Below are positions 4,088-49,909 of a stretch of DNA of 64,000 nt, piece after piece. This DNA comes from Ureibacillus massiliensis 4400831 = CIP 108448 = CCUG 49529. Lineage in GTDB: Bacteria; Bacillota; Bacilli; Bacillales_A; Planococcaceae. Within the stretch, counting starts at the first letter, position 1. Each line of letters opens with the position of its first letter. The DNA lies in NCBI RefSeq assembly GCF_000772965.1, contig NZ_JPVQ01000013.1:1-64000 (forward strand), given 5' to 3'. The translations under genes and the position numbers were made by a program. The notes beneath the pieces are model-generated. The model was not told where the DNA came from. It did no database searches and saw only the letters and a program-made list of their open reading frames with translations.

Positions 4088-4356
4088 TCAAAATACCTCC
4101 ATAATCATTATGTAATATAACCTGATTTAGAATTAAAAATTTGTTTATAACTCGTTATTAATAGCTTCTACATCTTAAGGAAAATGTATTCTCCTTTTAC
4201 AAACTTTAGAACTATCTCCAAGGACTTTTGAATAGGTACAGTGTGTTTAAGTACGGGTATAGAACATCATATTTTCTACATTTTCTAGTTGGTTTTAGTC
4301 CACAATAGAAAAGTTGATTATAATTATAATAATAAGTCTAAATCTGAGGTGGAATG

Positions 4357-12033: not shown

Positions 12034-12036
12034 TCA

Positions 12037-12801
12037 ATGAAAATCAAATTTTTATCTGAAGACGCCCTACAAGACCTTCGTGTAAATTTTGAAACCTATA
12101 AAGAGCACTACTATAAGCGGGACGATGCTTGGTTTGATGAGTACTTTGGTCAAGAGGGGCGATTACTAGAGTCGAAGATTGAGTTTGAGAAGCCTGAACT
12201 ACATATGGGGGGAGATTACTTAGTTAGAGATTATGAAAATGTGAAAATCGTCTATGAATCATTGAAAGATCTACCAGTTTCTTTGGCAACACAAGAAAAG
12301 CTCTGGTCTGGCCTTGCCCATGTGTATTTCCGCGACTACATCTATTACCGAATTGCGAAAGACATTGAAAAGAAAAACGATACACGTATCAAATCTGCCA
12401 TGTTCTTTGAAAACGGTGCGAAACGTTCGTTGTTCGTCCACGCACTAGCTCGTCTATGGTGGGTAGGATACATGACATATGATGAAAACAATCAAGAAAA
12501 CCCATATTGGTTAACAGAATTCTTCTGCTCAGCGGACTTCTCAGCACGTTGTGTCGTGTTCTTTTCAAGTAACTTCACATCAAACCGTGCGATTACTAAA
12601 GGGATTTTACGAGCACTGATTGCTCTGCGTGATGAGGGTGTTGTTATTAAGCGTGATCATTTTGTTGAATCGACTAAGTACCTTAACATATCCGGTGGGG
12701 CCTTGGTGCTTGATCTTCTAGAAGAAGATGAGGTGAAAGAGATGGTAGAGAAGAGAATAAAAAAAGTATTTGATGTAAAAAAAGTAGTTGTAATTAGTTA
12801 A
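12037..12801 (+). CDS. DUF6339-like protein, third gene of the GHKL cassette
   Basis: This 254-residue protein starts 3 bases after the previous stop. Its middle (LWSGLAHVYFRDYIYYRI, then NGAKRSLFVHALARLWWVGY) and the following SADFSARCVVFFSSNFTSN resemble the family I know as DUF6339, which I recall near ATP-binding proteins in bacterial islands. The family name is from memory and should be confirmed. No nuclease motif is evident. With the two preceding genes it forms a compact, equally composed operon that is richer in GC than the genes after 12939. Confidence 0.55.
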   Translation: MKIKFLSEDALQDLRVNFETYKEHYYKRDDAWFDEYFGQEGRLLESKIEFEKPELHMGGDYLVRDYENVKIVYESLKDLPVSLATQEKLWSGLAHVYFRDYIYYRIAKDIEKKNDTRIKSAMFFENGAKRSLFVHALARLWWVGYMTYDENNQENPYWLTEFFCSADFSARCVVFFSSNFTSNRAITKGILRALIALRDEGVVIKRDHFVESTKYLNISGGALVLDLLEEDEVKEMVEKRIKKVFDVKKVVVIS

Positions 12802-12962: not shown

Positions 12963-14225
12963 TTGAATGAATTTGATTGGTTCTTATCCATATTAGAAAA
13001 ACAGGATATGGCAACTATAGCGAGTAGATTCAATGTGCAGATACAAGGATTTGATAAAAATATTCAAAATGCACCTGTAATAAGGTTAAGAAATGCTATT
13101 AAAGAATATCTAAACAATGGTCTATTACGCAAGAAAAAAAGAGCATTAAATTATCAGCAAATGCTTAACACAATTGCTGATGAATTGAATTTAAAGAGTA
13201 ATACATTAGAGGAATTTATTATGCAAATAGAACTAGATAACGAAATTAGGCCGTATCAAGCGTTTGCATATCTATACATTAATTTTCAAAAGATCTTTGA
13301 AGAAAAGAAAGATCTTTTGAAGGGAAATATGGAGAATAATGATTTTATATTCAAAGGTTTAATAGAGGAACGAACAACAAAAGATAAAATTCAATCTCTA
13401 ATAAATACACAATTAGGTAAAGATGAAATATACAGAAATTTAAAGAGCTATGAAAATCTATTAGAAAAAGGGGAATTAAAAAATGATTATTACTTATTTA
13501 GAGAAAAAATAAAAGGTGATGTAGAGATTCTTTTCAAAGAATTAATTAAATGTCCAAAAGAAAAGCTCCTCTTGGTACTATTTGCTTTTATTATTGAAAA
13601 TGAAAACTATATTAATCCCGAGTATTACTATATTCTCAAAGAAGTAAAATATAGTTTCGAAAATTTAAAATATAAAAGGGAAGCATCGGAAAAAGAGAAG
13701 ATAATAGAAAATAATAAGATGCTACAATTAGAAAATGATGAGTTGATAACCTATAAAAATAGGTTTATTTCATTAAAAGAAGATAATGATAATTTGAAAA
13801 TTAAAATTTCATTATTACAGAGTAATATTAAACTTTTAGAAGAAGAACAAAATACTTTAAAATTAGCAAGTAAAAATTCTGAGATATTAAGTACATTAAT
13901 AAACAATTTAATAAAAGAAAAAAATTTCTTAATCATTACAAGTGAAATTGCTGAATTTAAAAATACTCCATTAGATGTATATGTGAGAGAAATAAAAGAT
14001 TTTACTGAAGATAAAAAAATAAAGAATTTACAACCATATAGGGATAAAATTTTATTCTTTACTAGAGTATCCTTTGAGACTAGAGAATGGGGAAAGATTA
14101 AAATTTATTTAGAAAAGAATAAGTTGAAATATTATGAACTAGGTCATTTTGATATTGCGTCGTATATGGCAGAAATAATTCAATTTATATATAGAGAGGA
14201 GTTAGAATATGAGTTTGAATACTAA
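12963..14225 (+). CDS. Helical/coiled-coil protein, first gene of an McrBC-like module
   Basis: This protein is about 420 residues long, strongly helical, with a clear coiled coil at about residues 225-310 (heptads of E, K, N and L). An ATG at 12939 is in frame, but the following three AGG codons are part of an AAGGAGGAGG ribosome site. That site places the true start at the TTG at 12963. The C-terminal part contains LQPYRDKILFFTRVSF and a YELGHFDIASYMAEI segment. It overlaps the next gene by 17 bases. Coiled-coil partners of McrB/McrC-type nucleases are known from coiled-coil nuclease tandems; I infer a sensor or scaffold role. Confidence 0.6.
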   Translation: MNEFDWFLSILEKQDMATIASRFNVQIQGFDKNIQNAPVIRLRNAIKEYLNNGLLRKKKRALNYQQMLNTIADELNLKSNTLEEFIMQIELDNEIRPYQAFAYLYINFQKIFEEKKDLLKGNMENNDFIFKGLIEERTTKDKIQSLINTQLGKDEIYRNLKSYENLLEKGELKNDYYLFREKIKGDVEILFKELIKCPKEKLLLVLFAFIIENENYINPEYYYILKEVKYSFENLKYKREASEKEKIIENNKMLQLENDELITYKNRFISLKEDNDNLKIKISLLQSNIKLLEEEQNTLKLASKNSEILSTLINNLIKEKNFLIITSEIAEFKNTPLDVYVREIKDFTEDKKIKNLQPYRDKILFFTRVSFETREWGKIKIYLEKNKLKYYELGHFDIASYMAEIIQFIYREELEYEFEY

Positions 14226-16260
14226 ACCTGGCGAAGAGGTTCTCACAGAAAAGGAAAAGCGAAAAATAGAAGATTGTTATATTTTAGGTAAATTAGCTGA
14301 AGATAGTTATAGTCTACCGACATTGGGAAGAGATCTTGGTCGTTCTGTAAGTTTAACTGACTTTTCAGGGCCAGATAAAGTTGTGTTTTATATTAAAAGT
14401 CTTTCTACTGAACCACTCTTATTAGGTGAAAGATTAGGTAAGACATCAAGTGATGTTTATGTTACATTTGATAACCGAAACAGAAGATATTTACAGAGAT
14501 TTGAATATATGGATTTAAGTGATGAAGAAAAAGTAGATTTTATTCGTAACCACTTTGAAGGAAAACTTATATTATTTAAACCTAAAATTACGTATGAAAG
14601 AAATAGAGATAAATATCACTACAATTTAGAAATAGTAATGGTGGAACCAGATGAAGATATGGGGGTTTTAAGTTATATACCTATCCCATCTATCAAACAA
14701 GGTATCACTCACAACAGATTTGAGAAGTTTCTGTTAGATGAAAAGCCATTAGAATTAACAATGTACAATCATGAATTGGATATTCCTCAATTTATTGTGT
14801 GTGATAAGTATCTATATCAAATTGGTGATGATGCACTAGAAAAATACCAAGCGCGTGAAACTCTCTATATTTGTAGAAAACCAGAAGAAATTAGAAGAAT
14901 TCCACTACCTGAAAATTGGTCATTTGAGTACGCTAGAGCTCTATATAATGATATTCAATTTATCTCTACGAATCATAAAATGGAATTATTAAATGAATTT
15001 GATGAAAAGGGAGAATTAATTGTAGATTCTTATAAACAAAGTGAAAAGATAGAGGTTAAAAAGATAAGTGAAAATAATGATGATTTTAGTAGCACTCCTG
15101 AAAGTTTCGATAACCATAATGCAATAATATCTGAAAGTAAGTTTATAGAATGGATTGAGTTTTTGGCCCAAAAACGAGGCTTAATTTACGAATTCAATGA
15201 CATTATTAATTTTCACACTTCATTAAAAACCGCTAACTTCTCCATACTAGGTGGAATGAGTGGAACAGGAAAAAGTGAACTCGCTCGACTATATGCTGAT
15301 GCACTGGGTCTAAAAGAAGGAGATAATTTACTTTTTGTACCTGTTAGTCCGTCGTATACAGAACCATCAGATGTGCTGGGTTTTTTAAACCCTCAAACAG
15401 GTATATTCTTAGAGAGTGAAGTAGGTCTGGTTAATTTTATACTTGAGGCTGAGAGAAATCCTAAAAAAATGCACATGGTTGTATTTGATGAAATGAATCT
15501 AGGGCAAGTAGAACATTATTTCAGTCCATTTATCTCTCTACTAGAAGGTAAAAAGGAAGAAAGAAAACTAAAACTCTTTGGCCCAAAAAACATTACACAT
15601 CAGCCTGAATTGAGAGAAATTTCAATTGGATCGAATTTGTTATTTGTTGGAACAGCTAATTTCGATGAAACAACACGTGATTTTTCAAATAGAATGCTAG
15701 ATAGAAGTAATGTTATTTTACTAGAAAAGAAAAATTTTATAGATTCAAAACGGGAAGAAGAGGAAGCATCAAAGGACATAGATGAATATCAAAGTAAAAC
15801 AAAAAATGAATTGCATGAAATAGGAGGAATTAGTGCGGAAAACTTTTTAAGTTGGATTAAGGAACCTCTGGGATTAAGAGCTTTAGATGATTCCGAGTTA
15901 TTAATACTAGATAAGATCCATGAGGAAATTAGTAACTTTGACAGCCAGACTGGAGTAAGTTTCAGAATTGTGAAAAGTATTGGTCATTATCTGGATAATA
16001 TACCAAAAGATGAAGATGGTAATGATTTGTTATCTCGCGAAATGGCATTTGATTACCAAATTAAACAACGAATCCTAACAAAAGTACGTGGACATAGAGA
16101 GCAGATAGAATCTTTAGTAGGTTGGATAGATGAAGAAGAAAATTATAAAAATGGTAAACTAGGAAACATCCTAACAGAAGAAGAAAATAAATTTGCAATT
16201 TCACGTAAATATCTTAAACAAAAAAGTAAAGAGTTGATGAGAAATGGTTTTACATTATAA
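14209..16260 (+). CDS. McrB-like AAA+ ATPase
   Basis: The first ~330 residues of this 683-residue protein are variable. The AAA+ motor then shows Walker A GGMSGTGKSELARLY at about residue 350, Walker B VVFDEMNLGQVEHYFS at about 425, and VGTANFDETTRDFSNRMLDR at about 480. The last takes the place of the NTADRS signature of true McrB. The motif GTxN-x-DET is typical of AAA proteins paired with DUF2357 nucleases. The ATG is preceded by GAGGAG and overlaps the upstream gene. The following nuclease gene again overlaps by 17 bases, so all three are co-translated. Confidence 0.8.
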   Translation: MSLNTKPGEEVLTEKEKRKIEDCYILGKLAEDSYSLPTLGRDLGRSVSLTDFSGPDKVVFYIKSLSTEPLLLGERLGKTSSDVYVTFDNRNRRYLQRFEYMDLSDEEKVDFIRNHFEGKLILFKPKITYERNRDKYHYNLEIVMVEPDEDMGVLSYIPIPSIKQGITHNRFEKFLLDEKPLELTMYNHELDIPQFIVCDKYLYQIGDDALEKYQARETLYICRKPEEIRRIPLPENWSFEYARALYNDIQFISTNHKMELLNEFDEKGELIVDSYKQSEKIEVKKISENNDDFSSTPESFDNHNAIISESKFIEWIEFLAQKRGLIYEFNDIINFHTSLKTANFSILGGMSGTGKSELARLYADALGLKEGDNLLFVPVSPSYTEPSDVLGFLNPQTGIFLESEVGLVNFILEAERNPKKMHMVVFDEMNLGQVEHYFSPFISLLEGKKEERKLKLFGPKNITHQPELREISIGSNLLFVGTANFDETTRDFSNRMLDRSNVILLEKKNFIDSKREEEEASKDIDEYQSKTKNELHEIGGISAENFLSWIKEPLGLRALDDSELLILDKIHEEISNFDSQTGVSFRIVKSIGHYLDNIPKDEDGNDLLSREMAFDYQIKQRILTKVRGHREQIESLVGWIDEEENYKNGKLGNILTEEENKFAISRKYLKQKSKELMRNGFTL

Positions 16261-18115: not shown

Positions 18116-18148
18116 GGACTGTTTCCATAATTCCCCGGAAAACAGTCC
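18116..18148. terminator. Bidirectional terminator between convergent genes
   Basis: GGACTGTTTCC at 18116-18126 pairs with GGAAAACAGTCC at 18137-18148, with one bulged A. It is flanked by A-rich sequence on the left and T/C-rich sequence on the right. Confidence 0.75.
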
Positions 18149-18155
18149 CTTTCTC

Positions 18156-18473
18156 TTATTCATACACTAAATAATGGTAAATATCATACTGCACAGGCTG
18201 CTCTAACACCAAATTCATCATAACTACTGAAAGATCTTTACCTTTTCCATCCGGCATCATTTCGTTTTTCGCACTATCTTCTGCAATTTCAACTTCCTCT
18301 AAATAATAGAAGTTGCTACCTTTACCGTCATCTTTTTTCGTAAACAAGTGGATTTTTAGTCCAGAATCTTTATAAGGTAGAATTGTTTTTACTTCATTCG
18401 AATCTAGTGTTAAACAGTTACGAGTGAACCATCTAAATAGTTTTTGATTTCTCTTTAAAAATGACCCGGCCAT
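18156..18473 (-). pseudogene. Detached C-terminal module of a DUF3427-type helicase
   Basis: This frame reproduces the C-terminal end of the helicase encoded just upstream (18735-21617). KLFRWFTRNCLTLDSNE matches LFQWCSTKKRTVDAKD, LKIHLFTKKDDGKGSNFYYL matches VHLFVKKHNGEGKDFYYL, and NLVLEQPVQYDIYHYLV is nearly identical to the end of the helicase. No helicase motor or PLD domain is present. The frame opens inside the preceding small ORF (18433-18657) and is offset from it, so either a frameshift or a loss of the rest of the gene has occurred. It is probably a decayed duplicate, although a small functional protein cannot be excluded. Confidence 0.65.
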
Positions 18474-18657
18474 CTTCCCAAGTATCTTTTGTTATGACAA
18501 TTGTGTAGATAAAATCTGCACATTCTAAAATTACTTTTTCTTTATCCCATAAAGCAATTTTTAAATCAATGTCTATATTTCGTTCCTTATCTCTTAGTAC
18601 AACAAGGCTATTTTGTGATAAATCATGCCAACTTATCGTTTTATCCATCATAACCAT
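18433..18657 (-). CDS. Small protein or N-terminal part of the broken module
   Basis: This 74-residue frame starts with ATG behind AAAGGATG. It has protein-like beta-strand composition (SLVVLRDKERNIDIDLKIAL, then CADFIYTIVITKD). It ends 41 bases into the overlapping frame of the helicase C-terminal duplicate. The two could be one gene split by a frameshift near 18460, or two overlapping small genes. No family is recognised. Confidence 0.4.
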   Translation of the reverse strand: MVMMDKTISWHDLSQNSLVVLRDKERNIDIDLKIALWDKEKVILECADFIYTIVITKDTWEDGRVIFKEKSKTI

Positions 18658-18734
18658 CCTTTCTTAAAAGGAAAAAATTCATTCTATGAAATTATCTAGA
18701 GACGGATAGCTAAATTACATACAGCTCCGTATTA

Positions 18735-21617
18735 CTATTCCTCCACCAAATAATGATAAACATCATACTGCACAGGTTGTTCTAAAACCATATTCATTGT
18801 TACAACCTTATGTTCACCATCTTCGTCTACCAATTTCTCATTTGTTGCTGTTTGGCTATCAACAGTAACTGGGCCAAGATAGTAGAAATCTTTACCTTCT
18901 CCGTTATGTTTCTTAACAAATAAATGTACTGTAATTCCTTTTTCAGCCGAATGAATGATAAGGGAGATATCTTTAGCGTCCACTGTACGTTTTTTAGTAG
19001 AGCACCATTGGAATAAGTCATTTGATAAAAACTCATCTAAATATTTAGCAGTAGTATCATCATTTTTGTGATAATTTACAAAGATAGGACAAACATTATC
19101 TTTAACTCTTCCCCCATTAAGCGTACCTTCTTCGTTCTTAGTGTAATTAAGTAGTCTACAAGCATCTTTTCTGGAGTACTTTTCATATAGTGTCATAGCT
19201 TTTGTTTTATCATATTTTGCATTCTTGATGTACGCGCATTTTATAATATCCTCGATATATCCTCTGAAATTAGAGTCCCGAAGACTTTCTTGGATTTCCT
19301 CATTGAATTGATAGTTTCCATTAACGTTTTCAATAATTGGTTTAAATCCATACTTTTTAATATCAGTTTGAACGAAGAATTGTAATGAAAAGATATTTTC
19401 AACTGATGTAATTGTATCCTCATCTACATAAGTACCGAAATCTTGAAGCTTTTGAATGTAATCCTCTTTATTAATAGAATCATTATTTAACATCGATTCA
19501 ATTAATATTATTTCATGAATTCTTTTCCCGTTTAAAAATTCCTTGGAAACCATAGTTATTATTGATTGTTCGTAATCAGTAAGTGACGGAATATCCTCGT
19601 TTATTTTTAATAGAAACTTGTAGTAATTATCCGCGTATCCAATAATTACTTCTGGATCTAGCGAGTTTTGAGTCATGAAATCATGTAGTGTAGGGATTCT
19701 ACCTAAACGATTTTTCACTTCTGTATAAGCTTCTTTCAATGTCTTCAAAGTTGATAAATTAGTATTGTTAATTGCATCGAAAATTCGTTTCTTTGCAATT
19801 TCTTCAAAGTTAATAGTAGAAACGCCGCTAATATAATCCGTATTTACTGTTCTACGGCGAACATTATCTTTATTCATTGATTGGTCCCCAGATAATGCAA
19901 TTGGGATTAAATAATTGTTTTTATAGTTTCCTATAAAATCGATGATCGTTACATAATCTTTTGAATCATGCTTTCGTAACCCACGTCCAAGTTGTTGAAT
20001 GAAGATGATGCTCGATTGTGTTTGGCGAAGCATGACAATTTGGTTTAAGAAGGGGATATCAATACCTTCGTTAAATATATCAACTGTTAGAATATACTGA
20101 AGTTCTCCATTCTCCAATTTCCGTATTGCATCTTCACGTTCTTCCTGTGAACTATCACCTGTTAAAGCAATTGTTCGAAGTCCTTCACGATTTAAAGCGG
20201 TAGAAAGTTCATATGTTTCATCTTTTCGACTACAGAAAATTAAGCCTTTAACTTGATCACCTGAATGTCCATAATAGTTAATTTTTTCAATAATATGATG
20301 AACACGTTCATAAGAAACGAGATTTCTTAATTCAGTAGCATCATCTATTAGTTCGCCATCTTTTTCATAATCTAAAACTCCAAAGTAATGGAAAGGGCAG
20401 AGCATATCCTCTTCAAGTGCTGCTTGCAAACGGATTTCATAGGCAATATTGTAATCGAATAATTCATAGATATTGAAGCTGTCTGTACGTTCAGGTGTTG
20501 CAGTCATACCTAATAGAAACTTTGGTGTGAAGTAGTTTATTACTTTTAGGTAAGAATCTGCACCAGCTTTATGGACTTCATCTATTAAGATGTAATCAAA
20601 TTGATCTTCTGCAAATTGTTGAAGATAGTTATCTTTTGAAACAGTTTGTATTGTTGCAAACAAATATTTCGCATTGACTTCCTTTGAATTTCCAGAAAGG
20701 ATGCCGAAATCTTCTTCATGCCCTCCGAGAATTTTTCTATAATCCTGCATAGCTTTCTTCAAAATTTGTTCGCGGTGAACGATAAACAACATCTTTTTCG
20801 GTCCAAAGTTACGAACATCAAAGGCAGACAAATATGTTTTCCCGGTACCAGTCGCGGAAATAATTAAACCTTTTTCTGCACCAGTTGCACGAAGTTCTTT
20901 TAATTGTTCTAAAGCGACAGACTGCATTTTATTTGGTTTGATAGATAGACTTTCAGCTAGTGAATTGGTTAAATACTTTGTATTAAGCTCTAGTGCATTT
21001 GAAGAAACAGTATTTACAAAAGGTTGTAACACGTGAACTTGCTTGTAATCAGCAATCCATTCCTCTGTTAAAACAATCCCTTCATCCCAAGCAGTTTCAA
21101 ATTGGTTTTTAAAATGTTGGATGATTTCGCCGTTCTCTAATGAGGTTAAAAAGACATTCCACTCATAGTTTGCTTTAAGTGCACTATCTGTTAGATTCGA
21201 ACTACCTACAATAAGGGAATAATAGTCTTCGTGTTCAAAAATATAACCCTTAGCATGGAAGCCCTTCTCTCCAGTTAGTCGGACTTCAACGTTATCTAAC
21301 TTCAATAGCTCTTTAAACATTTTAGGTTGATTAAAGTTTAAAAATGTTGAAGTCAAAATACGCCCTTTAACGCCTTTTTGTTTCAAATCATAGAGCATTG
21401 TTTTTAGTGTAGCTAGTCCACCTTCAGTAATAAAGGCAACAGAAAAGTAAAATGTCTTACAAGTTTTTAATTCTTGAAGTAATGTCGATAAGACGGATTC
21501 ATGGTGTTTGTTTGTAAGTAATTTGGGTTTAAATGTTGCAGAAACTGGTTTGTTTTGATCAATAAATCCCTTATGTAAGGAGTTCTCAATTTTCTGGATC
21601 AGTTGCTGTTGATTCAT
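18735..21617 (-). CDS. PLD-nuclease / superfamily 2 helicase / DUF3427 protein
   Basis: This 960-residue protein has three parts. A phospholipase-D-type nuclease domain is at about residues 40-170, with HAKGYIF and GSSNLTDSAL forming its HxK...N active site. An SF2 helicase follows, with Walker A SATGTGKTYLSAF at about 255, DEVH box ILIDEVHKAG, motif III GMTATPERTD, and motif VI QQLGRGLRKH at about 545. The C-terminal part is a DUF3427-like region ending in LEQPVQYDVYHYLVEE. Proteins of this build are common in defence islands, often beside a NUDIX gene as here. It is the second gene of a minus-strand operon, 7 bases after the NUDIX stop. Confidence 0.85.
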   Translation of the reverse strand: MNQQQLIQKIENSLHKGFIDQNKPVSATFKPKLLTNKHHESVLSTLLQELKTCKTFYFSVAFITEGGLATLKTMLYDLKQKGVKGRILTSTFLNFNQPKMFKELLKLDNVEVRLTGEKGFHAKGYIFEHEDYYSLIVGSSNLTDSALKANYEWNVFLTSLENGEIIQHFKNQFETAWDEGIVLTEEWIADYKQVHVLQPFVNTVSSNALELNTKYLTNSLAESLSIKPNKMQSVALEQLKELRATGAEKGLIISATGTGKTYLSAFDVRNFGPKKMLFIVHREQILKKAMQDYRKILGGHEEDFGILSGNSKEVNAKYLFATIQTVSKDNYLQQFAEDQFDYILIDEVHKAGADSYLKVINYFTPKFLLGMTATPERTDSFNIYELFDYNIAYEIRLQAALEEDMLCPFHYFGVLDYEKDGELIDDATELRNLVSYERVHHIIEKINYYGHSGDQVKGLIFCSRKDETYELSTALNREGLRTIALTGDSSQEEREDAIRKLENGELQYILTVDIFNEGIDIPFLNQIVMLRQTQSSIIFIQQLGRGLRKHDSKDYVTIIDFIGNYKNNYLIPIALSGDQSMNKDNVRRRTVNTDYISGVSTINFEEIAKKRIFDAINNTNLSTLKTLKEAYTEVKNRLGRIPTLHDFMTQNSLDPEVIIGYADNYYKFLLKINEDIPSLTDYEQSIITMVSKEFLNGKRIHEIILIESMLNNDSINKEDYIQKLQDFGTYVDEDTITSVENIFSLQFFVQTDIKKYGFKPIIENVNGNYQFNEEIQESLRDSNFRGYIEDIIKCAYIKNAKYDKTKAMTLYEKYSRKDACRLLNYTKNEEGTLNGGRVKDNVCPIFVNYHKNDDTTAKYLDEFLSNDLFQWCSTKKRTVDAKDISLIIHSAEKGITVHLFVKKHNGEGKDFYYLGPVTVDSQTATNEKLVDEDGEHKVVTMNMVLEQPVQYDVYHYLVEE

Positions 21618-22612: not shown

Positions 22613-22724
22613 CATCATTTATCAATATAGAAATACAAATGAAGAGAGAATCAATAACTCAAATAATTTATGGCTTTTAGTACATTAAAGGGTGTGTAAC
22701 TTATAATAGCCAAAGGAGGCTTCC

Positions 22725-23810
22725 ATGAACAAAGATCTCGAAAAATTCAAACGTGCGTATGAACGGTTATGTAAACAGTTCAATATTGAACCAAATGAAG
22801 CTCAACATCCATTTCAAGAGGTTATGAGTGAACTTGAAGTGGCGTCGAAAGAAAGTGATGCGAAGCAAGCCGAAGAGAGGATGCGAAGATTACAGCGTTC
22901 GAAGCAGGAGTATTTCAGAAAAGTGGACCCGCAAAGTCGACCTTTACGTGAACGGATTTTTCTCCATGATTCACGAACTCAGGATAGACCAATCATTGAG
23001 AAAAAGCGCAAAGAACTAGAACAGCAATTTCGCGAGATTTTAAGAACTGAGCCGAATAATGCTGTTGTCCGCTACCGTTATGGATATTTTCTTATGGAAG
23101 AGATGAACTTTTCCCGAGCCATCCGTTATTTTGAAGAGGCGTTACGAGTACATAACAAGCGCAATTGTACAGTTCCCTTAGAAGAGGCGCAAAAGGTGAA
23201 AGCCCATATGTATATTGGTTTTTGTGGTGGGCAGTTGCTGAAAGAGAGTTTGGATCAGTTAGGGCAGATTGAGGTGGATTTTGAGTCATTTGATACTGAG
23301 GGGCGAACGATGACAAAAGCTTTACTAATGGTAATGAATGAGCGCGAGCAATATTATGCCATTGTGAATGGAGAAAAACGGGCTATCTCCTTAACGGAAT
23401 ATTTGCGATACAAAGAAGTTTTAGAAGAGGATTGTTTGTTCATTAGTGAAGTAGAAGGTGCGACATTTATTAAATTAGGCGAGTGGAGAACGAAAGACTT
23501 TCCATCTGCGTTATCGAGGCTAATCCATGTCATTATGCAGGAAATAACTAGTGATGGCTATGTAACGGTTGAAAGGCTGCAGGAGTTGTTGGATGGTCGA
23601 AATACAGCTGATTCAATAAGAAGAAACATTGATCGCATTCACGAACAATGCAAGGTTCTTAAAGATGAACATGATATTGAATTATTTAAATTAGACCGTT
23701 CCAACCCAGAAGCCCCAAAAGTAAAGCTTGTCCTCGAAAATTATATATACGTCTATCGGGAAACTGAAAAATTTGATTTTACCCAATTAAATATTGATGA
23801 AGAAGAATAA
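22725..23810 (+). CDS. TPR-like protein with N-terminal helical region
   Basis: This 361-residue protein is mostly helical. At about residues 100-145 it has a TPR-like pair (ILRTEPNNAVVRYRYGYFLM, then NFSRAIRYFEEALRVHNKR). After it come a beta-rich middle (YYAIVNGEKRAISLTEYL) and a C-terminal helical part that may include a winged-helix (RLQELLDGRNTADSIRRNI). A clean AAAGGAGG ribosome site precedes the ATG. It is followed by its own terminator. The TPR suggests protein-protein contacts; the role is unknown. Confidence 0.65.
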   Translation: MNKDLEKFKRAYERLCKQFNIEPNEAQHPFQEVMSELEVASKESDAKQAEERMRRLQRSKQEYFRKVDPQSRPLRERIFLHDSRTQDRPIIEKKRKELEQQFREILRTEPNNAVVRYRYGYFLMEEMNFSRAIRYFEEALRVHNKRNCTVPLEEAQKVKAHMYIGFCGGQLLKESLDQLGQIEVDFESFDTEGRTMTKALLMVMNEREQYYAIVNGEKRAISLTEYLRYKEVLEEDCLFISEVEGATFIKLGEWRTKDFPSALSRLIHVIMQEITSDGYVTVERLQELLDGRNTADSIRRNIDRIHEQCKVLKDEHDIELFKLDRSNPEAPKVKLVLENYIYVYRETEKFDFTQLNIDEEE

Positions 23811-23818
23811 CAGGTTAG

Positions 23819-23850
23819 CAGCAAACGAGTGAAGGTTTGCTGTTTTTTTT
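23819..23850 (+). terminator. Terminator of the TPR-like gene
   Basis: CAGCAAAC at 23819-23826 pairs with GTTTGCTG at 23835-23842 and is followed by eight T residues. Confidence 0.9.
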
Positions 23851-23903
23851 GCATTAGGTAAAGTATTTATCTTACTTTGCGTTTGCCAACATTCAGGCGA
23901 GTT

Positions 23904-24021
23904 CTAATAATTTTTGAATTTTGGCTAATAAGTCCTGTAGATTGTCTGATAACTCTATGATTTTGACTAATAAGTCCCGTAGATTGTCCGATAACTCTAT
24001 AATTTTGTCTAATAACAGCCG
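23904..24021. repeat. 42-bp tandem repeats
   Basis: Near-identical 42-base units starting CTAATAAGTCC begin at 23925 and 23967; a third, truncated copy begins at 24009 and a half-length copy lies at 23904. Units differ by a few transitions (for example CCTGTAG versus CCCGTAG). The period of 14 codons keeps a minus-strand frame open (GLISQNHRVIRQST), but there is no convincing start or ribosome site for a gene there. The repeat lies just before the peptidase gene and could vary in copy number. Confidence 0.75.
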
Positions 24022-24149
24022 TGGGGATCGCGGAATTTTCAATAAGTAATTCTATACCGTCGTTGGACAAAGTTGTCCGGCGCACCATGCTATAACTTTC
24101 ATATACCGTTAAACAAAGCGGACACAATAGTTGAAGGAGCGGATTGTTT

Positions 24150-25481
24150 ATGAACAAAACATCAATTATCGAATTAATGATGCGTTACGGAATTATGGTA
24201 GAGGCAAATGAAATTGGCATTAATTGCACGGATTCAAACAAAGATAATCAACAACACTTTGTAAAAGTGACTGAAATGTTACATCAACAAGGCATCGATC
24301 TAAATGATGAAATGGTGGAAGCGGAGTTTATTAACATACTAGAAGAACTTTATGAGTCAACAGGAGAAAATTTATTTTCACCAGAAACTCTTGCCATCCA
24401 CACAATAGACATTTATGTGCGTGGATTAGTGATGCAGCTGAATCGCCTACTTTGTACGACTACAAATAGCTGTGATGGACATGATCGTCGCAGAGCGCAT
24501 ATTTATTTTGCAACAGTTAGAGAGGCAAGAAGAGCAAAACTTTTTTTAGAACATGTAGGTTTATCATGTCGTATGGGCAATTATGAACTGAAGTTTCAAC
24601 CAAACCGCTATGAACTACCGAAGTTCGCTACTGCTTTATCCAAATTAACAATCGCAGAGGCTGAAGAGATTGTGACAGAGAACAGTCCATTACTGGTAGA
24701 GGAAAAGTACTACGCATTATTAGAAGAATTACTTTCGATTTATGGTGTTAGTGGGGAAGAAGGGGAGATTCGTGATACTGTTGTACATTCCTTAAGACCA
24801 CACGTTGACCACCTTGAAGTTGACCATTACGGCAATGTGCTGGCACAAATAAAAAAAGGAAATGGGCCAACGATTTTAATCAATGCCCATTTGGATACCG
24901 TTCATGATTTTGTAGAAGGCCGTGAAATTTTAAAAAACGGTAATATTTGTTCATCAAGTGAAGGTGTTTTAGGAGCGGATGATAGAGCGGGAGTATGTGT
25001 TGCATTGGCAGTTGCAAAAACACTTCATAAGACGAATTTCAATGGGACAATTAAGTTTATTTTCACAGTGGAAGAAGAAATCGGTTTGCGTGGTGCAAAA
25101 CAAGTAGCGAAATCATTTTTATGGGATGTGGATATGGCATTTGTCATTGATCGTCGTGGCACGGGTGATATCGTAACATCTTGCGGGGGCTACCTTCCTT
25201 TCTGTTCAGATGAGTTTGCAAGAGAAGTGGAAAGCATTGGTCGCATCATGCAATGGGGACGTTGGCAAACGGTCGCTGGTGGTAGTAGCGATACACGTAT
25301 TTGGGCAGAGCAAGGCATCAACAGCGTCAATTTATCAGCTGGTTACAATAACGAACACACATCTGATGAATTCTTGATACCTGAGGCAAATTACGAAACA
25401 TATGAATTTGTCATGCTGCTCATAGAAAAGAGCAGAAGATTAACGGAAAGAAGCTTGAAACGAAGAAGAAATCAACTTTAA
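24150..25481 (+). CDS. M20/M42-type zinc metallopeptidase with extra N-terminal domain
   Basis: The C-terminal ~265 residues are a di-zinc aminopeptidase/deacylase fold. The visible motifs are INAHLDTVHDF (first metal ligand), GVLGADDRAGVC (bridging Asp), FIFTVEEEIGLRGAK (catalytic Glu pair), AFVIDRRGTGD, and a late histidine in NNEHTSDEF. The first ~175 residues are an additional domain (RRAHIYFATVREARRAKLF) not found in the standard enzymes. AAGGAG lies 10 bases before the ATG at 24150; a TTG at 24144 is less well placed. The last 66 bases are duplicated at 27570-27636 around the inserted cassette; the resident C-terminus now reads KRRRNQL instead of the old KRRNRAEVV tail. Confidence 0.8.
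   Translation: MNKTSIIELMMRYGIMVEANEIGINCTDSNKDNQQHFVKVTEMLHQQGIDLNDEMVEAEFINILEELYESTGENLFSPETLAIHTIDIYVRGLVMQLNRLLCTTTNSCDGHDRRRAHIYFATVREARRAKLFLEHVGLSCRMGNYELKFQPNRYELPKFATALSKLTIAEAEEIVTENSPLLVEEKYYALLEELLSIYGVSGEEGEIRDTVVHSLRPHVDHLEVDHYGNVLAQIKKGNGPTILINAHLDTVHDFVEGREILKNGNICSSSEGVLGADDRAGVCVALAVAKTLHKTNFNGTIKFIFTVEEEIGLRGAKQVAKSFLWDVDMAFVIDRRGTGDIVTSCGGYLPFCSDEFAREVESIGRIMQWGRWQTVAGGSSDTRIWAEQGINSVNLSAGYNNEHTSDEFLIPEANYETYEFVMLLIEKSRRLTERSLKRRRNQL
25401..25467 (+). repeat. Left 67-bp direct repeat (DR-L), inside the peptidase 3' end
   Basis: This sequence is repeated at 27570-27636 in the same orientation with 66 of 67 identical bases (G at 25410, A at 27579). It codes for the peptidase C-terminus and marks the left edge of the inserted cassette. 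Confidence 0.9.
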
Positions 25482-25701
25482 GTACTAAATCGGGAAGTAA
25501 TAAAATATAAGGAAACTTTATAAACCTACGAAAAATAGAAAATAGTGATAATAAGTCGAAAAACCACAATTACAAGTAATACGAAATAAATCAGATTATC
25601 AAGTAATTTAGGGAATTATAAATAGATTTAAACAAATATACCAAAAGCATCATATAACACGTATGCCTCTCATAAATTTTGGAGATGATAGTTAGAAATA
25701 G

Positions 25702-25731
25702 TTTACTAAAATAATCCAAATATGGTATTAT
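25702..25731 (+). promoter_or_regulatory. Promoter of the SecB-like cassette
   Basis: TTTACT at 25702-25707 and TATTAT at 25726-25731 are 18 bases apart, with a TG extended -10 at 25724-25725. The predicted transcript start, near 25739, lies after the in-frame ATG at 25722. This is one reason to prefer the ATG at 25767 as the true start of the first gene. Confidence 0.5.
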
Positions 25732-25766
25732 GGGAGGGCGATAATTTGTTAAAGGGAGTTGTGATT

Positions 25767-26351
25767 ATGAAAAATATTAATATTCAAAAACAAAATTCTT
25801 TAATCTATTCCCACTTAACAATTAACCAGCAACAGTATGACAACAATGAAGACCATGTTAAGTTAATTCAATTTCGTTTAAATTTGTTTAAAGAAGTAGT
25901 TGAAACTGGAATTATAAAAGTGAAAAATTATCTACTTCAATATATTAAACAGAATAAAAATAATTATAAAGAGAATAATGAGTTGCTTCATATCGTACAA
26001 GATTTCTTACGTTCAGAAGAAGAGTTTAAAATTCATGGTATTTCTACATTGAACAAAATTTCAAATGAGATTGAACTAAAGAATGTTAATATTGATATTT
26101 ATAAAGAACTAACAAGAATCATAAATAACCATATTAAAATTGCAAATGAACTAATAAATAAAGAAATTGATTTACTAAGAGTAGAATACATTTCAAATTA
26201 TATTCGAGAAATTGGCACTTATATAGGACTAGATCTTAATGTTGAAAAAATACCTGGTCTAAAAAATATTGAAATCACTTTAAATGTTAAGAAAAAAGAA
26301 ACTCTTATAATTAAAGATTTATATTATCTCCATAAAAAGGATATTGCATAG
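25767..26351 (+). CDS. Unknown helical protein, first gene of the inserted cassette
   Basis: This 194-residue protein starts at ATG 25767, preceded by AAAGGGAG. It is AT-rich and strongly helical (FRLNLFKEVVETGIIKVKNY, NELLHIVQDFLRSEEEFKI). The C-terminus switches to a short beta-like, lysine-rich end (ITLNVKKKETLIIKDLYYL). I do not recognise a family. It is 10 bases from the SecB-like gene and shares its promoter. As the gene upstream of a dedicated SecB-like chaperone, it or the third gene is a candidate client (antitoxin or nuclease regulator), by analogy with toxin-antitoxin-chaperone systems. Confidence 0.6.
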   Translation: MKNINIQKQNSLIYSHLTINQQQYDNNEDHVKLIQFRLNLFKEVVETGIIKVKNYLLQYIKQNKNNYKENNELLHIVQDFLRSEEEFKIHGISTLNKISNEIELKNVNIDIYKELTRIINNHIKIANELINKEIDLLRVEYISNYIREIGTYIGLDLNVEKIPGLKNIEITLNVKKKETLIIKDLYYLHKKDIA

Positions 26352-26361
26352 GTGAGATTTT

Positions 26362-26835
26362 ATGAATAATGAAAAATACAATAAACTCATAGAAAAAATA
26401 TCCCTTGATAAAATCGAGTTAAATTCTTTGAACTGTGCACAAAACGAAAATTTCAATGAAAAGGGAAACTTAGATATTGTACTAAATCATGATATTATTA
26501 ACACCATAGTACATGGTGTGGAACTTTCGACATTAATTTCTTTTAAAATATTAGCTGTAAATAATAATGAAATAGAAATAGAGAATAATAAATCTTTAAA
26601 TAAAGATAGCATATTGTTTAAAATTGAATTTATTTTAAATTTAGAATATTCCCTTCAAATCGAGAGTGAAGAAGATTTTTTAGTAGATTATAAAAAAGAA
26701 ATCGAGACGTTTGTTGAAAATAATGTACCTTTCAATGCTTGGCCGTATGCAAGAGAAATTGTTAGTTCAATAACGACTAGAATGGGATTTCCAGCTTTAA
26801 TTATGCCAACATATAAACTTATTCCAAAGTATTAG
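26362..26835 (+). CDS. SecB-like chaperone
   Basis: This 157-residue protein matches the SecB fold in its recognisable C-terminal motif, NVPFNAWPYAREIVSSIT then MGFPALIMP, which corresponds to the PYAREL...TRGGFP signature of SecB. The preceding strands (SILFKIEFILNLEYSLQIES) fit the SecB beta sheet. Housekeeping SecB is not normally present in Bacillus relatives, so this is more likely a system-specific chaperone, as in toxin-antitoxin-chaperone modules. It starts with ATG behind GGTGAGATTT, 10 bases after the previous stop. Confidence 0.7.
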   Translation: MNNEKYNKLIEKISLDKIELNSLNCAQNENFNEKGNLDIVLNHDIINTIVHGVELSTLISFKILAVNNNEIEIENNKSLNKDSILFKIEFILNLEYSLQIESEEDFLVDYKKEIETFVENNVPFNAWPYAREIVSSITTRMGFPALIMPTYKLIPKY

Positions 26836-26845
26836 GTGTGTTCGA

Positions 26846-27553
26846 ATGTCTTTAACATTTCATGAAAGTAAAAATATTAGTAATCAACATTTAGTTACCG
26901 CAATTGTTGATGAAATAAAACAATATCCTAAACTATTTTTATGGATTGCTAGACTCTTTTCAATATATAAAAAGAATCCTAATAATATACTATCTGAAAT
27001 TTATGAGCAGGCAAAATCATTTCTATCGTTGGAAAAAAATTTGACTGAGGAAAAAATTGAATATCTTGCAGGAAAATTGAAGAGTATCTATGAGTTAGTA
27101 CCAGATAAATTCAGTGACACTCGTTCAAAAATTTTAGAAAGTGTAACTTATTATTTTGGACCTGTAACCAAAGGGTTAAAACATGAAAAGTGTTTTGTTG
27201 AACCGGTCATTAAAGATAATAATTTGATTGTTGGAAATTCAGAAATAAAATGTGACCTTGTTTATTATTATAATGATTTTAACCCTTTAGAATTCGTTGA
27301 ATGCAAAGCAGATATTGGGAATGTAATACCGAAAACATACGCTTTTGAAAAAGCAAAGAAAAGCCATCAAGATAAGTTAAAGTATTTAGAGTGCGCTTAT
27401 CAATATCTAACAAAAAGATATTGCGAACCAAAGATATATTTTGCATGTTACAATATGAATTATGCAGAAGAATTAAATAACCTTCAAAATAATTGGGGCT
27501 TTAACTATATAAATTTTGTCAATCCTGTTGAAATATTAAATGGGAAGATATAA
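26846..27553 (+). CDS. PD-(D/E)XK nuclease-like protein, third gene of the cassette
   Basis: This 235-residue protein ends in a nuclease-like core: the acidic strand IKCDLVYYY, then PLEFVECKADIGN (D...E-x-K) at about residues 137-162, followed by a helix with KAKKSHQDKLKYLE. The first 100 residues are helical (VTAIVDEIKQYPKLFLWIAR). Starting 10 bases after the SecB-like stop, behind TAGGTGTG, it completes the three-gene operon. I infer DNA cutting; which family is not clear. Confidence 0.6.
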   Translation: MSLTFHESKNISNQHLVTAIVDEIKQYPKLFLWIARLFSIYKKNPNNILSEIYEQAKSFLSLEKNLTEEKIEYLAGKLKSIYELVPDKFSDTRSKILESVTYYFGPVTKGLKHEKCFVEPVIKDNNLIVGNSEIKCDLVYYYNDFNPLEFVECKADIGNVIPKTYAFEKAKKSHQDKLKYLECAYQYLTKRYCEPKIYFACYNMNYAEELNNLQNNWGFNYINFVNPVEILNGKI

Positions 27554-27569
27554 GTTATTTAAAAAAATT

Positions 27570-27636
27570 TATGAATTTATCATGCTGCTCATAGAAAAGA
27601 GCAGAAGATTAACGGAAAGAAGCTTGAAACGAAGAA
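27570..27636 (+). repeat. Right 67-bp direct repeat (DR-R)
   Basis: Same sequence as 25401-25467, one mismatch. Its continuation restores the original peptidase frame: after CGAAGAA the sequence reads on as AAC CGG GCT GAA GTA to a stop at 27678-27680. Confidence 0.9.
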
Positions 27637-27680
27637 ACCGGGCTGAAGTAGTTATAACGAGAAATAAAATGTTAGGATAA
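27570..27680 (+). pseudogene. Displaced original 3' end of the peptidase gene
   Basis: The frame after the right repeat reads SLKRRNRAEVVITRNKMLG then stop, and is followed at once by a terminator. This is best read as the former C-terminus of the peptidase encoded at 24150-25481, pushed downstream by insertion of the cassette. It has no start of its own. Confidence 0.75.
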
Positions 27681-27703: not shown

Positions 27704-27741
27704 AAAAAGCCGGCAGATAATACTTAGTTGCTGGCTTTTCT
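27704..27741 (+). terminator. Terminator, originally of the peptidase gene
   Basis: AAAAGCCGGCAG at 27705-27716 pairs, with two G-T pairs, with TTGCTGGCTTTT at 27728-27739. It lies directly downstream of the old peptidase stop and now ends the inserted operon. Confidence 0.8.
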
Positions 27742-36258: not shown

Positions 36259-36552
36259 ATGTCAGGAATTATTCGTGTTACCCCAGCTGAATTAGAAGGT
36301 ATGTCTAACCGTTACGGAAGTGAAAGTGCACAAGTTGAAGAACAAATCTCACGTTTGGATAGTATGATTCAAGAGTTACAAGGTATGTGGGAAGGTGAAT
36401 CCAGCCGAGCATTCGCTGAGCAATATGATTCACTTAGACCCTCCATTGTGGATATGCAACGACTATTACAAGACGTTTCAACACAATTGAAAAATACAGC
36501 ACATGCCCTTGATGATGCAGATCGTCAAATTGCGAGCCAAATTCGCGGATAA
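36259..36552 (+). CDS. esxA: WXG100 protein EsxA/YukE
   Basis: This 97-residue helical hairpin has the central WEG turn (GMWEGESSRAFAEQYD) of WXG100 proteins and a charged C-terminal helix that would carry the YxxxD/E-like secretion signal. It is the small secreted substrate and co-activator of Gram-positive type VII systems. It is the first gene of the locus, behind AAAAGGAGAG, with its own terminator before yukD. That lets it be expressed at higher level than the machinery genes. Confidence 0.95.
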   Translation: MSGIIRVTPAELEGMSNRYGSESAQVEEQISRLDSMIQELQGMWEGESSRAFAEQYDSLRPSIVDMQRLLQDVSTQLKNTAHALDDADRQIASQIRG

Positions 36553-36581
36553 CATTATAACTTCATCTTAGAATTAATATC

Positions 36582-36615
36582 AAAGAGCGTCATTATACGA
36601 TGAAGACGCTCTTTT
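36582..36615 (+). terminator. Terminator after esxA
   Basis: AAAGAGCGTC at 36582-36591 pairs with GACGCTCTTT at 36605-36614. Confidence 0.85.
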
Positions 36616-36748
36616 CCTTTATGTAGTGGAATACAAAGATTGTTGTCCATAAAAAATAAGAGGAATCCATAAAGTCACATTGGTTTATGAGGAAGTTTAC
36701 CTTTTATAAAAAATACAAGTGTAATAGATTTTCCCTGAGGTGATGAAG

Positions 36749-36988
36749 GTGTACATAGAAATATCAATCGACTTAAAACATTATAACGGGGACTGTTTTG
36801 ACCTACGTCTATCAGACTACTATACCGTCAAAGAATTAATCGATATCGTTTGGCAAGCAAAATCTATTTCCTATCCACCAAAGGAAGGGTTTTGGGTTCG
36901 AGTGCCAAACAAACAAAAGGTTTTATCAGGGAATGAACAACTAGCGGGAAGTGGTATCACAACTGGTGATCGACTAGAAATTTTGTGA
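36749..36988 (+). CDS. esaB: Ubiquitin-like EsaB/YukD
   Basis: The start is the GTG at 36749, which gives a protein beginning MYIEISIDLKHYNGDCFDLR, as in Bacillus YukD, and is placed 8 bases after GAGGTGAT; the in-frame GTG at 36740 overlaps that ribosome site. The 79-residue ubiquitin-like fold (ITTGDRLEIL at the end) is an accessory component of type VII secretion. The next gene starts 13 bases later. Confidence 0.92.
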   Translation: MYIEISIDLKHYNGDCFDLRLSDYYTVKELIDIVWQAKSISYPPKEGFWVRVPNKQKVLSGNEQLAGSGITTGDRLEIL

Positions 36989-37001
36989 GGGAGTCATAGA
37001 G

Positions 37002-38402
37002 ATGTTAGAGAAAAAACAGTCTTATTTAGAAAAACAGTTAGATGCGACCCTTAAGTTTCAGTCAGAACAAATTACACTTACTTTTCAAAATGAGAAAGTG
37101 AAATTAGAAGATGAGCTAGAAATCGCACTTCTACGTGAAGTGAATCCCTTTATTCAGAAAGAAATTACATTAACGGAAGATGAATTAATCTTTACATACA
37201 AAAAAGAACCCAACTTTATCACCTTTGAGAAATTACGGTCGTTTGATGAAAAAAGTCGCTGGATGTTTGCTTCTAACATTGTGAAATCAATTATAATGCA
37301 TTCATCCAATCGACTTCACATCTTTCTTTGCCCTGAAAATATTTTGATTGACGAGAGCCTAACACCATATTTTTTGCATTATGGAGTGAAAGAAAGTATT
37401 CCACCTTATGAACGAGATGAAAAACGGCTTTGGCAAGAAACGAGGGCGACCATTGCAGCTGTAGTTGAACCCCAATTTACCTTTGAGCAATACATTCAGT
37501 TTTCAAAGTCGATTGAACTGAGTGCTATGGCTGAAAATGTTATGGGAGCGAAGGATGAAACAGAGCTGCTGGATATTATTAAAAAACAGCTTCGGGTGAT
37601 AGAGAAACAAGAGAAAAGCTTCACAAAAATCAAGTTAACGAAATGGAATTGGTTGCGTTACAGTCTGTTTGGGCTCATTTTAGTATTGCTTCCGCTTAGC
37701 ATTTATACTGCCTATTCAGCGGTAATACTGCAGCCGAGACAAGAGGCATACATTGCGGTGCAAGGGCCATTTATTCAAAAAAACTATAGTGAGATCATCA
37801 ATAAGCTTACTAAGTATGACGTGGAAGATATGCCGGTAGTGATTCAGTATGAGCTATCTCTTGCGTATATTGTCAATGAAACGTTAATGGAGGAGCAAAG
37901 AGAAAACGTATTAAAGACTATCACACTACAAACGGATCCACGTTATTACAAATACTGGATATATATTGGAAGAGGGCAAGCTGAGGAAGCACTAAGCTTG
38001 GCAAGGCAGCTAGAAGATTTGGATTACATCATGCTTGCGTTATTACACTACGAGGAATCTGTAAAGGCTAACCTGAAAATAGAGGATGAAGAGCGAGAGC
38101 GACTGCTTGATAACATCAATACGGAAAAAGAAGAAATACAAAAACAACTCGAGGAAATAGCAGAAACCTTAGAGGAAGAGGAAGGAGGTAATCAAAAAGC
38201 TACAAGTTCGGTAGATGAAAACCCGTCTACAGATGAAATTGAAGCTGATGTGAATGATGATACTCCAGAAAATACGGAAACCGAAGAGAAATCAGTAACA
38301 GAACCTGTTGAGAGACCTACAACAAATTCAGACGAAAACCCAGTGACAGAATCGGCGGATAACCCAGTGGAAACTTCGGGTAATCAAACAACGAATGAAT
38401 AA
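37002..38402 (+). CDS. essB: Type VII secretion membrane protein EssB/YukC
   Basis: This 466-residue protein has a cytoplasmic pseudokinase-like domain (about residues 1-210), one membrane segment at about 220-243 (SLFGLILVLLPLSIYTAYSA) and an extracytoplasmic helical part. The C-terminal ~70 residues are a low-complexity Glu/Thr/Asn tail (NPVTESADNPVETSGN), longer than I would expect for the family. It forms the membrane core with EssC. Confidence 0.9.
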   Translation: MLEKKQSYLEKQLDATLKFQSEQITLTFQNEKVKLEDELEIALLREVNPFIQKEITLTEDELIFTYKKEPNFITFEKLRSFDEKSRWMFASNIVKSIIMHSSNRLHIFLCPENILIDESLTPYFLHYGVKESIPPYERDEKRLWQETRATIAAVVEPQFTFEQYIQFSKSIELSAMAENVMGAKDETELLDIIKKQLRVIEKQEKSFTKIKLTKWNWLRYSLFGLILVLLPLSIYTAYSAVILQPRQEAYIAVQGPFIQKNYSEIINKLTKYDVEDMPVVIQYELSLAYIVNETLMEEQRENVLKTITLQTDPRYYKYWIYIGRGQAEEALSLARQLEDLDYIMLALLHYEESVKANLKIEDEERERLLDNINTEKEEIQKQLEEIAETLEEEEGGNQKATSSVDENPSTDEIEADVNDDTPENTETEEKSVTEPVERPTTNSDENPVTESADNPVETSGNQTTNE

Positions 38403-38427
38403 TAAATCCCTATTAGAAGGTGATTTG

Positions 38428-46191: not shown

Positions 46192-46241
46192 GCAGGAAAA
46201 GCAATTATAAAAAAACAATAAAAGGAAAGGGGAGGAGTCAA

Positions 46242-48115: not shown

Positions 48116-48135
48116 CAGATGGAGGCACGAATTCC

Positions 48136-48927: not shown

Positions 48928-48958
48928 ATAAAAAATAATGGAAGTTAGGGTGACTAAA

Positions 48959-49887: not shown

Positions 49888-49909
49888 TCTGAAAATAGAA
49901 GGTGATGCA

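What the first reader, a model, noticed from the sequence alone, without database searches (positions are those of the whole stretch)
25401..27636. Mobile cassette bounded by 67-bp direct repeats in the 3' end of a peptidase gene
The last ~66 bases of the M20/M42-type gene are duplicated at 27570-27636 in direct orientation with one mismatch. Read through the right copy, the frame continues to an older C-terminus (…KRRNRAEVV…) and then meets the gene's own terminator, while the left copy leads to a new short tail (KRRRNQL). So about 2.2 kb carrying three AT-rich genes and their promoter was placed into the 3' end of a gene while leaving the gene functional. Elements that use gene 3' ends as attachment sites normally encode an integrase; none is here. 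This points to movement by a trans-acting recombinase or by homologous exchange, a 'defence islet' pattern.
Basis: partly seen in the sequence, partly recalled or inferred. Interest (0 to 1): 0.85.

Follow-up and report, generated by a model that had tools for sequence, protein, structure and literature searches.

The report
Defence cassette inserted without an integrase
A three-gene cassette, probably a chaperone-guarded anti-phage toxin system, has landed in the tail of a peptidase gene with no integrase found nearby, leaving a duplicated piece of that gene as a footprint that some related cassettes in other bacteria also show.

Summary
In detail: 67 nt of the peptidase gene's 3' end (25401-25467) recur at 27570-27636 with one mismatch, and only there in the genome. 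The right copy reads into an old C-terminus (...KMLG*) shared with two related genomes that lack the cassette; none of the 24 other genomes of the genus has genes 2 or 3. So this is an insertion.

The cargo is a rare conserved operon: variable helical protein, SecB-like chaperone, putative PD-(D/E)xK nuclease. The chaperone profile matches the M. tuberculosis TAC chaperone best; gene 1 ends in alanine in 7 of 10 lineages, as degraded TAC antitoxins do. I read it as a toxin-antitoxin-chaperone-like defence module.

Movement: no tyrosine recombinase lies on this contig. In 4 of 10 cassette lineages the operon lies between a host gene's end and a direct copy of it. In manC arrays holding Zorya, Druantia-like and Shango-like genes, 18 five-prime-truncated manC copies, all ending at the stop, punctuate the cassettes; no copy holds only the 5' part. 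Truncation points vary, which argues against a fixed attachment core and for host homologous or one-sided illegitimate recombination, as proposed for Vibrio T6SS immunity arrays. Function and mechanism are inferred, not tested.

The parts
24150..25481 (+). Anchor gene: M42/M28/M20-like peptidase, left (complete) copy with replaced tail KRRRNQL
   Evidence: Pfam Peptidase_M42 1e-15, M28 1.1e-14, M20 4.4e-10; orthologues in relatives
25401..25467 (+). Left copy of the 67-nt direct repeat, inside the peptidase gene's 3' end
25702..25731 (+). Promoter-like site of the cassette (TTTACT-18-TATTAT, TG before the second hexamer); weak evidence
   Evidence: consensus match only: 29 sites found against 18.6 expected in the region
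25767..26351 (+). g1: variable, mostly helical 194-aa protein ending in Ala; candidate antitoxin
   Evidence: no firm family
26362..26835 (+). g2: SecB-like chaperone of TAC type, 157 aa
   Evidence: Pfam SecB 4.9e-5, under Pfam's cut-off; PD-T4-9_C in 9 of 9 members; profile best matches Rv1957, PDB 5mtw, 2e-5
26846..27553 (+). g3: putative PD-(D/E)xK nuclease, 235 aa; candidate toxin/effector
   Evidence: D137 and E152-x-K154 in 10 of 10 aligned homologues; HSDR_N_2 in 3 of 10, best E 0.0033; fold not obtained
27570..27636 (+). Right copy of the 67-nt direct repeat: 5'-truncated piece of the peptidase gene
27637..27680 (+). Old peptidase C-terminus (NRAEVVITRNKMLG*) in frame with the right copy
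   Evidence: resembles tails of G022 and U. acetophenoni
27705..27739 (+). Hairpin, probable old terminator of the peptidase gene, now downstream of g3
   Evidence: similar hairpin in U. acetophenoni (L047), not predicted in the G022 stretch folded; not flagged by the scan

Best explanation
A 2.1-kb cassette g1-g2-g3 entered just before the end of the peptidase gene. Shown: the gene stays open with a replaced tail, and a 5'-truncated piece of the same gene, the old tail and a hairpin sit on the far side in direct orientation. Inferred: the cassette came on incoming DNA that also carried peptidase sequence, so that RecA-type pairing in that gene anchored one side; the other side closed by a short-homology (illegitimate) joint, or the whole came in by a single crossover, leaving the truncated copy. 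No dedicated integrase is needed. Repetition at one anchor gene would build arrays of cassettes punctuated by 5'-truncated gene copies, as seen at manC in other genomes. Inferred cargo function: a toxin-antitoxin-chaperone-like module in which the SecB-like g2 protects g1, an antitoxin with a C-terminal degron, and g1 holds the nuclease g3 inactive; a phage protein that captures g2 would let g1 be degraded and free g3.
For: Unique 67-nt repeat. Right copy continues into the old tail. Cassette absent from the 24 other genus genomes. No PF00589 recombinase on the contig. Same gene in relatives: relic and other cargo in U. manganicus, repeated 3' end in Paenisporosarcina TG20. In 4 of 10 lineages the operon lies between a gene end and a direct copy of it. 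manC: 18 five-prime-truncated copies ending within 4 nt of the stop, none with only the 5' part, 5 internal, 8 complete, in 10 loci of 8 genomes, with variable truncation points. Repeats of 428 nt and 3,854 nt around other cassettes. Cargo: conserved order; TAC-type SecB; g1 ends in Ala in 7 of 10 lineages against 15 of 187 long ORFs, a background that includes the g1 genes.
Against: Six of 10 lineages show no bracketing copy (two of these, L074 and L077, have under 1 kb of flank on one side). In G199 about 10 kb of other DNA also lies between the copies, and in TG20 the relic is upstream of the gene. At least four of the 18 manC copies are shared by descent, and the manC loci were chosen because they showed several pieces. 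Two peptidase breaks at about the same codon (window, U. manganicus) could also mean a preferred site. An integrase-bearing element lies beside one intact manC of G914. Serine recombinases were looked for only by a motif script in three loci. g3 has no firm family or fold; g1 ends in V or G in three lineages. No experiment; competence genes of the host were not searched.
Confidence: 0.5

Rival explanations
1. Site-specific integration: the 67-nt repeats are attL and attR of a small element that uses the peptidase 3' end; its integrase was lost or acts from elsewhere (CIME-, SCC- or satellite-like).
For: Short direct repeats at a gene's 3' end. U. manganicus and the window break at about the same codon. 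The genome holds 11 PF00589 matches on other contigs. One relative of the operon lies on a 52.8-kb viral contig, 5 kb from an endolysin gene. A 6-bp inverted repeat with an 8-bp spacer lies in the repeat (read by eye), not conserved in relatives.
Against: No recombinase in the cassette, on the contig or in the comparable arrays. Truncation points at manC run from nt 221 to nt 1027. Repeats of 0.9 and 3.9 kb in other loci are far longer than att cores.
Confidence: 0.27
2. Transposition with a long target duplication: the 67 bp are a target-site duplication made by a transposase acting in trans.
For: An IS-like gene in G488 is flanked by a perfect 137-nt direct repeat, so long duplications may occur in such genomes; IS1634-type elements are recalled to make long ones.
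Against: No transposase in the cassette; no inverted repeat of 16 nt or more joins the two ends in the list shown. A target duplication would not favour gene 3' ends at manC.
Confidence: 0.07
3. Duplication of the peptidase gene with later decay of one copy, the cassette having been there before or having come separately.
For: Peptidase relics exist in U. manganicus and TG20, so extra copies come and go.
Against: Copies are 98.5% identical while no homology is left outside the 67-72 nt; the old tail lies only on the right; the pattern recurs around the same operon family.
Confidence: 0.1

Closest known systems
T6SS orphan-immunity gene arrays of Vibrio cholerae, proposed to grow by homology-facilitated illegitimate recombination (PMC5361080; passages read)
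   Same: One conserved gene region as homology anchor, new module behind it, older modules pushed downstream, no integrase evidence
   Different: There the anchor is the secretion cluster and effectors are displaced; here ordinary genes (peptidase, manC) anchor defence cassettes and leave 5'-truncated gene copies
CmdTAC (PD-T4-9), anti-phage toxin-antitoxin-chaperone system (PMC11618068 and PMC9519451; passages read)
   Same: SecB-like chaperone in a three-gene operon; antitoxin highly variable and ending in a ClpXP-type signal
   Different: No ADP-ribosyltransferase toxin found; a putative PD-(D/E)xK nuclease instead; gene order g1-chaperone-nuclease rather than toxin-antitoxin-chaperone
TAC of M. 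tuberculosis, HigB1-HigA1-Rv1957 (PMC5105189 and PMC4257090; passages read)
   Same: g2 profile matches Rv1957 best among solved structures
   Different: g1 and g3 show no match to HigA or HigB families
CIME / composite SCC-type accretion at gene 3' ends (recalled; one search gave a search listing only)
   Same: Direct repeats at a gene 3' end, accretion, cargo without its own integrase
   Different: Those have a fixed att core and a known recombinase; neither was found here

Membership tests
Toxin-antitoxin-chaperone (TAC) systems | SecB-like chaperone encoded in the operon | tested here: met
Toxin-antitoxin-chaperone (TAC) systems | Antitoxin with C-terminal chaperone-addiction region or degron | tested here: inconclusive
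   g1 ends in Ala in 7 of 10 lineages; the rest end in V or G
Toxin-antitoxin-chaperone (TAC) systems | Toxin in the operon | tested here: inconclusive
   g3 has a PD-(D/E)xK-like motif but no firm family; toxicity not testable here
Toxin-antitoxin-chaperone (TAC) systems | Neutralisation of the toxin depends on the chaperone | not testable with these tools
   needs co-expression assays
CmdTAC (PD-T4-9) | CmdT-type ADP-ribosyltransferase | tested here: not met
   no PADLOC match for g1 or g3 up to E 5
CmdTAC (PD-T4-9) | CmdC-type SecB-like chaperone | tested here: met
   PD-T4-9_C matches 9 of 9 members, best E 8.4e-8; for the window protein 2.4e-5
Integrase-type integrative element or CIME | Direct repeats at a gene 3' end | tested here: met
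Integrase-type integrative element or CIME | Integrase in the element or nearby | tested here: not met
   PF00589: none on the window's contig; serine recombinases not searched by profile
Integrase-type integrative element or CIME | Fixed recombination core | tested here: inconclusive
   manC truncation points vary, but the window and U. manganicus break at about the same codon
Integrase-type integrative element or CIME | Excision as a circle | not testable with these tools
   needs PCR on live cultures
Transposon with target duplication | Transposase and terminal inverted repeats | tested here: not met
   no transposase among g1-g3; no end-to-end inverted repeat of 16 nt or more in the list; shorter ones not tested
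Arrays made by homology-facilitated illegitimate recombination | Anchor gene complete, truncated remainders downstream in direct orientation, no integrase | tested here: met
   window; manC loci, although G380 and G488 show no complete manC in the fetched loci
Arrays made by homology-facilitated illegitimate recombination | Microhomology at the illegitimate joint against the known donor | not testable with these tools
   donor sequence unknown

The most novel reading that the evidence does not exclude
Defence islands can grow without integrases as 3'-end-anchored arrays. A cassette travels together with the 3' part of an ordinary chromosomal gene, uses it as a homology arm, lands behind the intact gene and leaves a 5'-truncated copy. 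Each new arrival can reuse the anchor, so the copies record the order of acquisition. The window's peptidase, manC, an amidase and an aminotransferase would be four anchors of one process, which carries a new nuclease-type toxin-antitoxin-chaperone module among other systems.
Probability: 0.4. Interest if true: 0.8.

Novelty: new variant of a known kind. Interest (0 to 1): 0.62.

Why it matters
How chromosomal defence genes move when they are not on phages, plasmids or integrase-bearing islands is poorly understood. A footprint that can be read from sequence alone (5'-truncated copies of an anchor gene in direct orientation) would allow a genome-wide census of integrase-free acquisitions and of their order. 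The cargo adds a candidate nuclease version of the chaperone-guarded anti-phage systems.

Tried and rejected
Homology beyond the 67-72-nt repeat on either side: none better than shuffles (p = 0.17 downstream, 0.13 upstream). A displaced peptidase tail further along the U. manganicus contig: about 113 kb searched, nothing convincing. Empty site of the G246 cassette: only chemoreceptor-region matches. Empty site of the G265 cassette: only partial matches, in 4 of 25 other genomes. Plasmid and phage collections: no g3; g2 finds 32 plasmid records, all below 60% identity. Viral contigs gave one contig for g3 and the same one for g2. The G450 hit (L081) was dropped as spurious (other gene family); G515 (L080) sits at a contig edge and was left out of the operon and flank counts; G380, G488, G915 and G923 were counted as one lineage. 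Profile comparison of g3 with the window's own HSDR_N protein: no relation. Solved structures related to g3: none credible. Structural RNA in the region: none up to E 0.5. Structure prediction of g3 was accepted but not finished; that of g1 was never accepted. Literature: all 10 searches used; their listings showed no description of such peptidase or manC arrays or of a SecB/nuclease TAC, in this open-licence library only.
Full report
Observation. The repeat is real and unique in the genome. The interval of 2,102 bp has 25.4% G+C against 34.9% for the rest of the window and holds three co-directional ORFs. The left copy runs into KRRRNQL*, the right copy into NRAEVVITRNKMLG*, followed by a stable hairpin that the simple terminator scan did not flag.

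Empty arrangement. The named relatives of the peptidase point to Ureibacillus. Of 24 other genomes of the genus, seven hold a 59-80% identical peptidase and one a 46% identical one. G022 and U. acetophenoni end in ...KLG* and continue with sequence that aligns to the window's right copy and hairpin region, with no cassette. The hairpin is predicted in U. acetophenoni but not in the G022 stretch that I folded. In the other orthologues the tail has diverged. Gene 2 has no match in the 24; among 261 family genomes five match at E <= 0.001, two of them weakly and with stops. Gene 3 is found in 3 of 261, this genome included. No other genome of the same species was available, so the exact empty site was not seen.

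Same gene, other events. In U. manganicus the peptidase stops at about the codon where the window's repeat ends (...LMRR*). It is followed by 7.5 kb of other genes and then by a relic of the peptidase (155 nt, 82%) in direct orientation. In Paenisporosarcina sp. TG20 the last 65 nt of the peptidase gene recur 7.5 kb upstream (90.8%), next to a second piece of the gene. The other nine relative loci show no second peptidase piece.

Context. Left of the peptidase lies a defence island: a McrBC pair (4354-7939), PDC-M33A/B/C (9267-12801), a PDC-M26A-like ATPase (14209-16260) and a type IV restriction gene (18735-21617). The neighbouring TPR gene region is 94-100% identical in DNA to G022 from about 22,800 to 24,100, while the peptidase next to it is 76-91%, about 82% on average. 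This suggests that homologous exchange between species has acted here.

Cargo. Profiles of gene 3 found the operon g1-g2-g3 in further Bacillota genomes. A phylum sample gave 8 of 398, this genome included; one was rejected (G450) and one lay at a contig edge (G515). A class sample gave 3 of 299, this genome included; both others hold all three genes. One 52.8-kb IMG/VR contig also has it, 5 kb from an endolysin gene. g2 is SecB-like: 9 of 9 members match PD-T4-9_C, and the profile's best solved relative is the M. tuberculosis TAC chaperone Rv1957. g3 keeps G105-P106, D137 and E152-x-K154 in 10 of 10 aligned rows but matches no family firmly. The name PD-(D/E)xK rests on this motif, recalled, and on weak HSDR_N_2 matches in 3 of 10. 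g1 is the most variable; a tyrosine near its end is conserved in 9 of 9 rows and the last residue is alanine in 7 of 10 lineages, against 15 of 187 long ORFs, which include the g1 genes. [quoted passage not shown] Hence the TAC-like reading, which is inference.

Footprint in other lineages. I examined 10 cassette lineages, counting the manC group once and leaving out G515. In four the operon lies between a host gene end and a direct copy of it: the window; G265, where a 905-nt repeat at 97% spans a whole amidase gene; G199, where a 5'-truncated aminotransferase end with its stop lies about 10 kb away at 75%, with other DNA also between; and the manC group. Six show none (L057, L074, L075, L077, L099, L100); L074 has only 307 nt and L077 only 845 nt of flank on one side.

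manC arrays. One search covered 21 genomes and 16 matched; I then read 10 loci of 8 genomes, most of them chosen because they showed several pieces. A full-length manC query maps 8 complete copies, 18 copies truncated at the 5' side that all end within 4 nt of the stop, no copy holding only the 5' part, and 5 internal pieces (E <= 1e-4 and 1e-3). At least four of the 18 are repeats by descent: three shared by G380 and G488, and one inside the G916 duplication. Within each locus all copies point the same way. The DNA between copies holds Zorya, Druantia-like and Shango-like genes and, by eye, type III CRISPR and McrBC genes, besides the operon of this report. In G380, G488, G915 and G923 the operon follows a manC end after a conserved spacer of about 117 nt; in G923 g2 and g3 are incomplete, and in the G915 locus the g3 reading frame listed is shorter than elsewhere. 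Direct repeats include 428 nt at 96% around a block that looks like CRISPR-III and 3,854 nt at 98.8% around an 8.3-kb block. The shortest manC copies, 48 and 53 nt as aligned, are close to the window's 67.

Mechanism. A site-specific element should show a constant core; the manC truncation points run from nt 221 to nt 1027. PF00589 was searched in 10 genomes (not in G199 or G917). No match lies on the window's contig, on G265:C23 or inside the array stretches of G380, G488, G914, G915, G916, G920 and G923; the nearest is about 43 kb from the fetched array stretch of G914. A second G914 locus has an integrase-bearing element beside a complete manC, but no second manC copy within the 18 kb fetched. 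Serine recombinases were looked for only by a motif script in three loci, without a flag. A one-sided homologous anchor with an illegitimate joint on the other side gives what is seen: the complete gene first, new cargo behind it, and a variably truncated remainder of the old gene. This was proposed for T6SS immunity arrays (PMC5361080, passages). A single crossover of a circle gives much the same picture and is not separated from it here.

Second case in the window. A 105-aa ORF at 18156-18473 is a 46% identical 3' fragment of the type IV restriction gene, in the same orientation. Its downstream sequence resembles the native downstream sequence of that gene in U. manganicus.

Noticed in passing
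window 18141-18797: A 105-aa ORF is a 3' fragment (46% aa identity) of the neighbouring type IV restriction gene in direct orientation, with a 74-aa ORF between them: a second, older gene-end remnant in the same island.
   Followed up: partly
window 22712-24100: The TPR gene region is 94-100% identical in DNA to G022 while the adjacent peptidase is about 82%, which points to recent exchange between species.
   Followed up: partly
L125-L138 and L148 (manC loci of other genomes): Defence arrays punctuated by 5'-truncated manC copies; in G916 a 3.9-kb block with manC is duplicated around an 8.3-kb block.
   Followed up: partly
L079 3196-3332 and 5303-5439: An IS-like 556-aa gene sits between perfect 137-nt direct repeats.
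   Followed up: no
L078 9333-9941 and the G923 counterpart: The N-terminal part of g1 in the manC group has a GxSLK-type motif that recalls CRISPR RAMP proteins (recalled resemblance, not tested).
   Followed up: no
window 36259-51469: Genes that look by eye like a type VII secretion locus, with two similar large ORFs that share a 630-nt repeat at 66%.
   Followed up: no
window 22725-25481 and relatives: The TPR gene and the peptidase stay together across Ureibacillus, Psychrobacillus, Sporosarcina and Paenisporosarcina loci, several with restriction-type genes nearby; the pair's own role is unknown.
   Followed up: no
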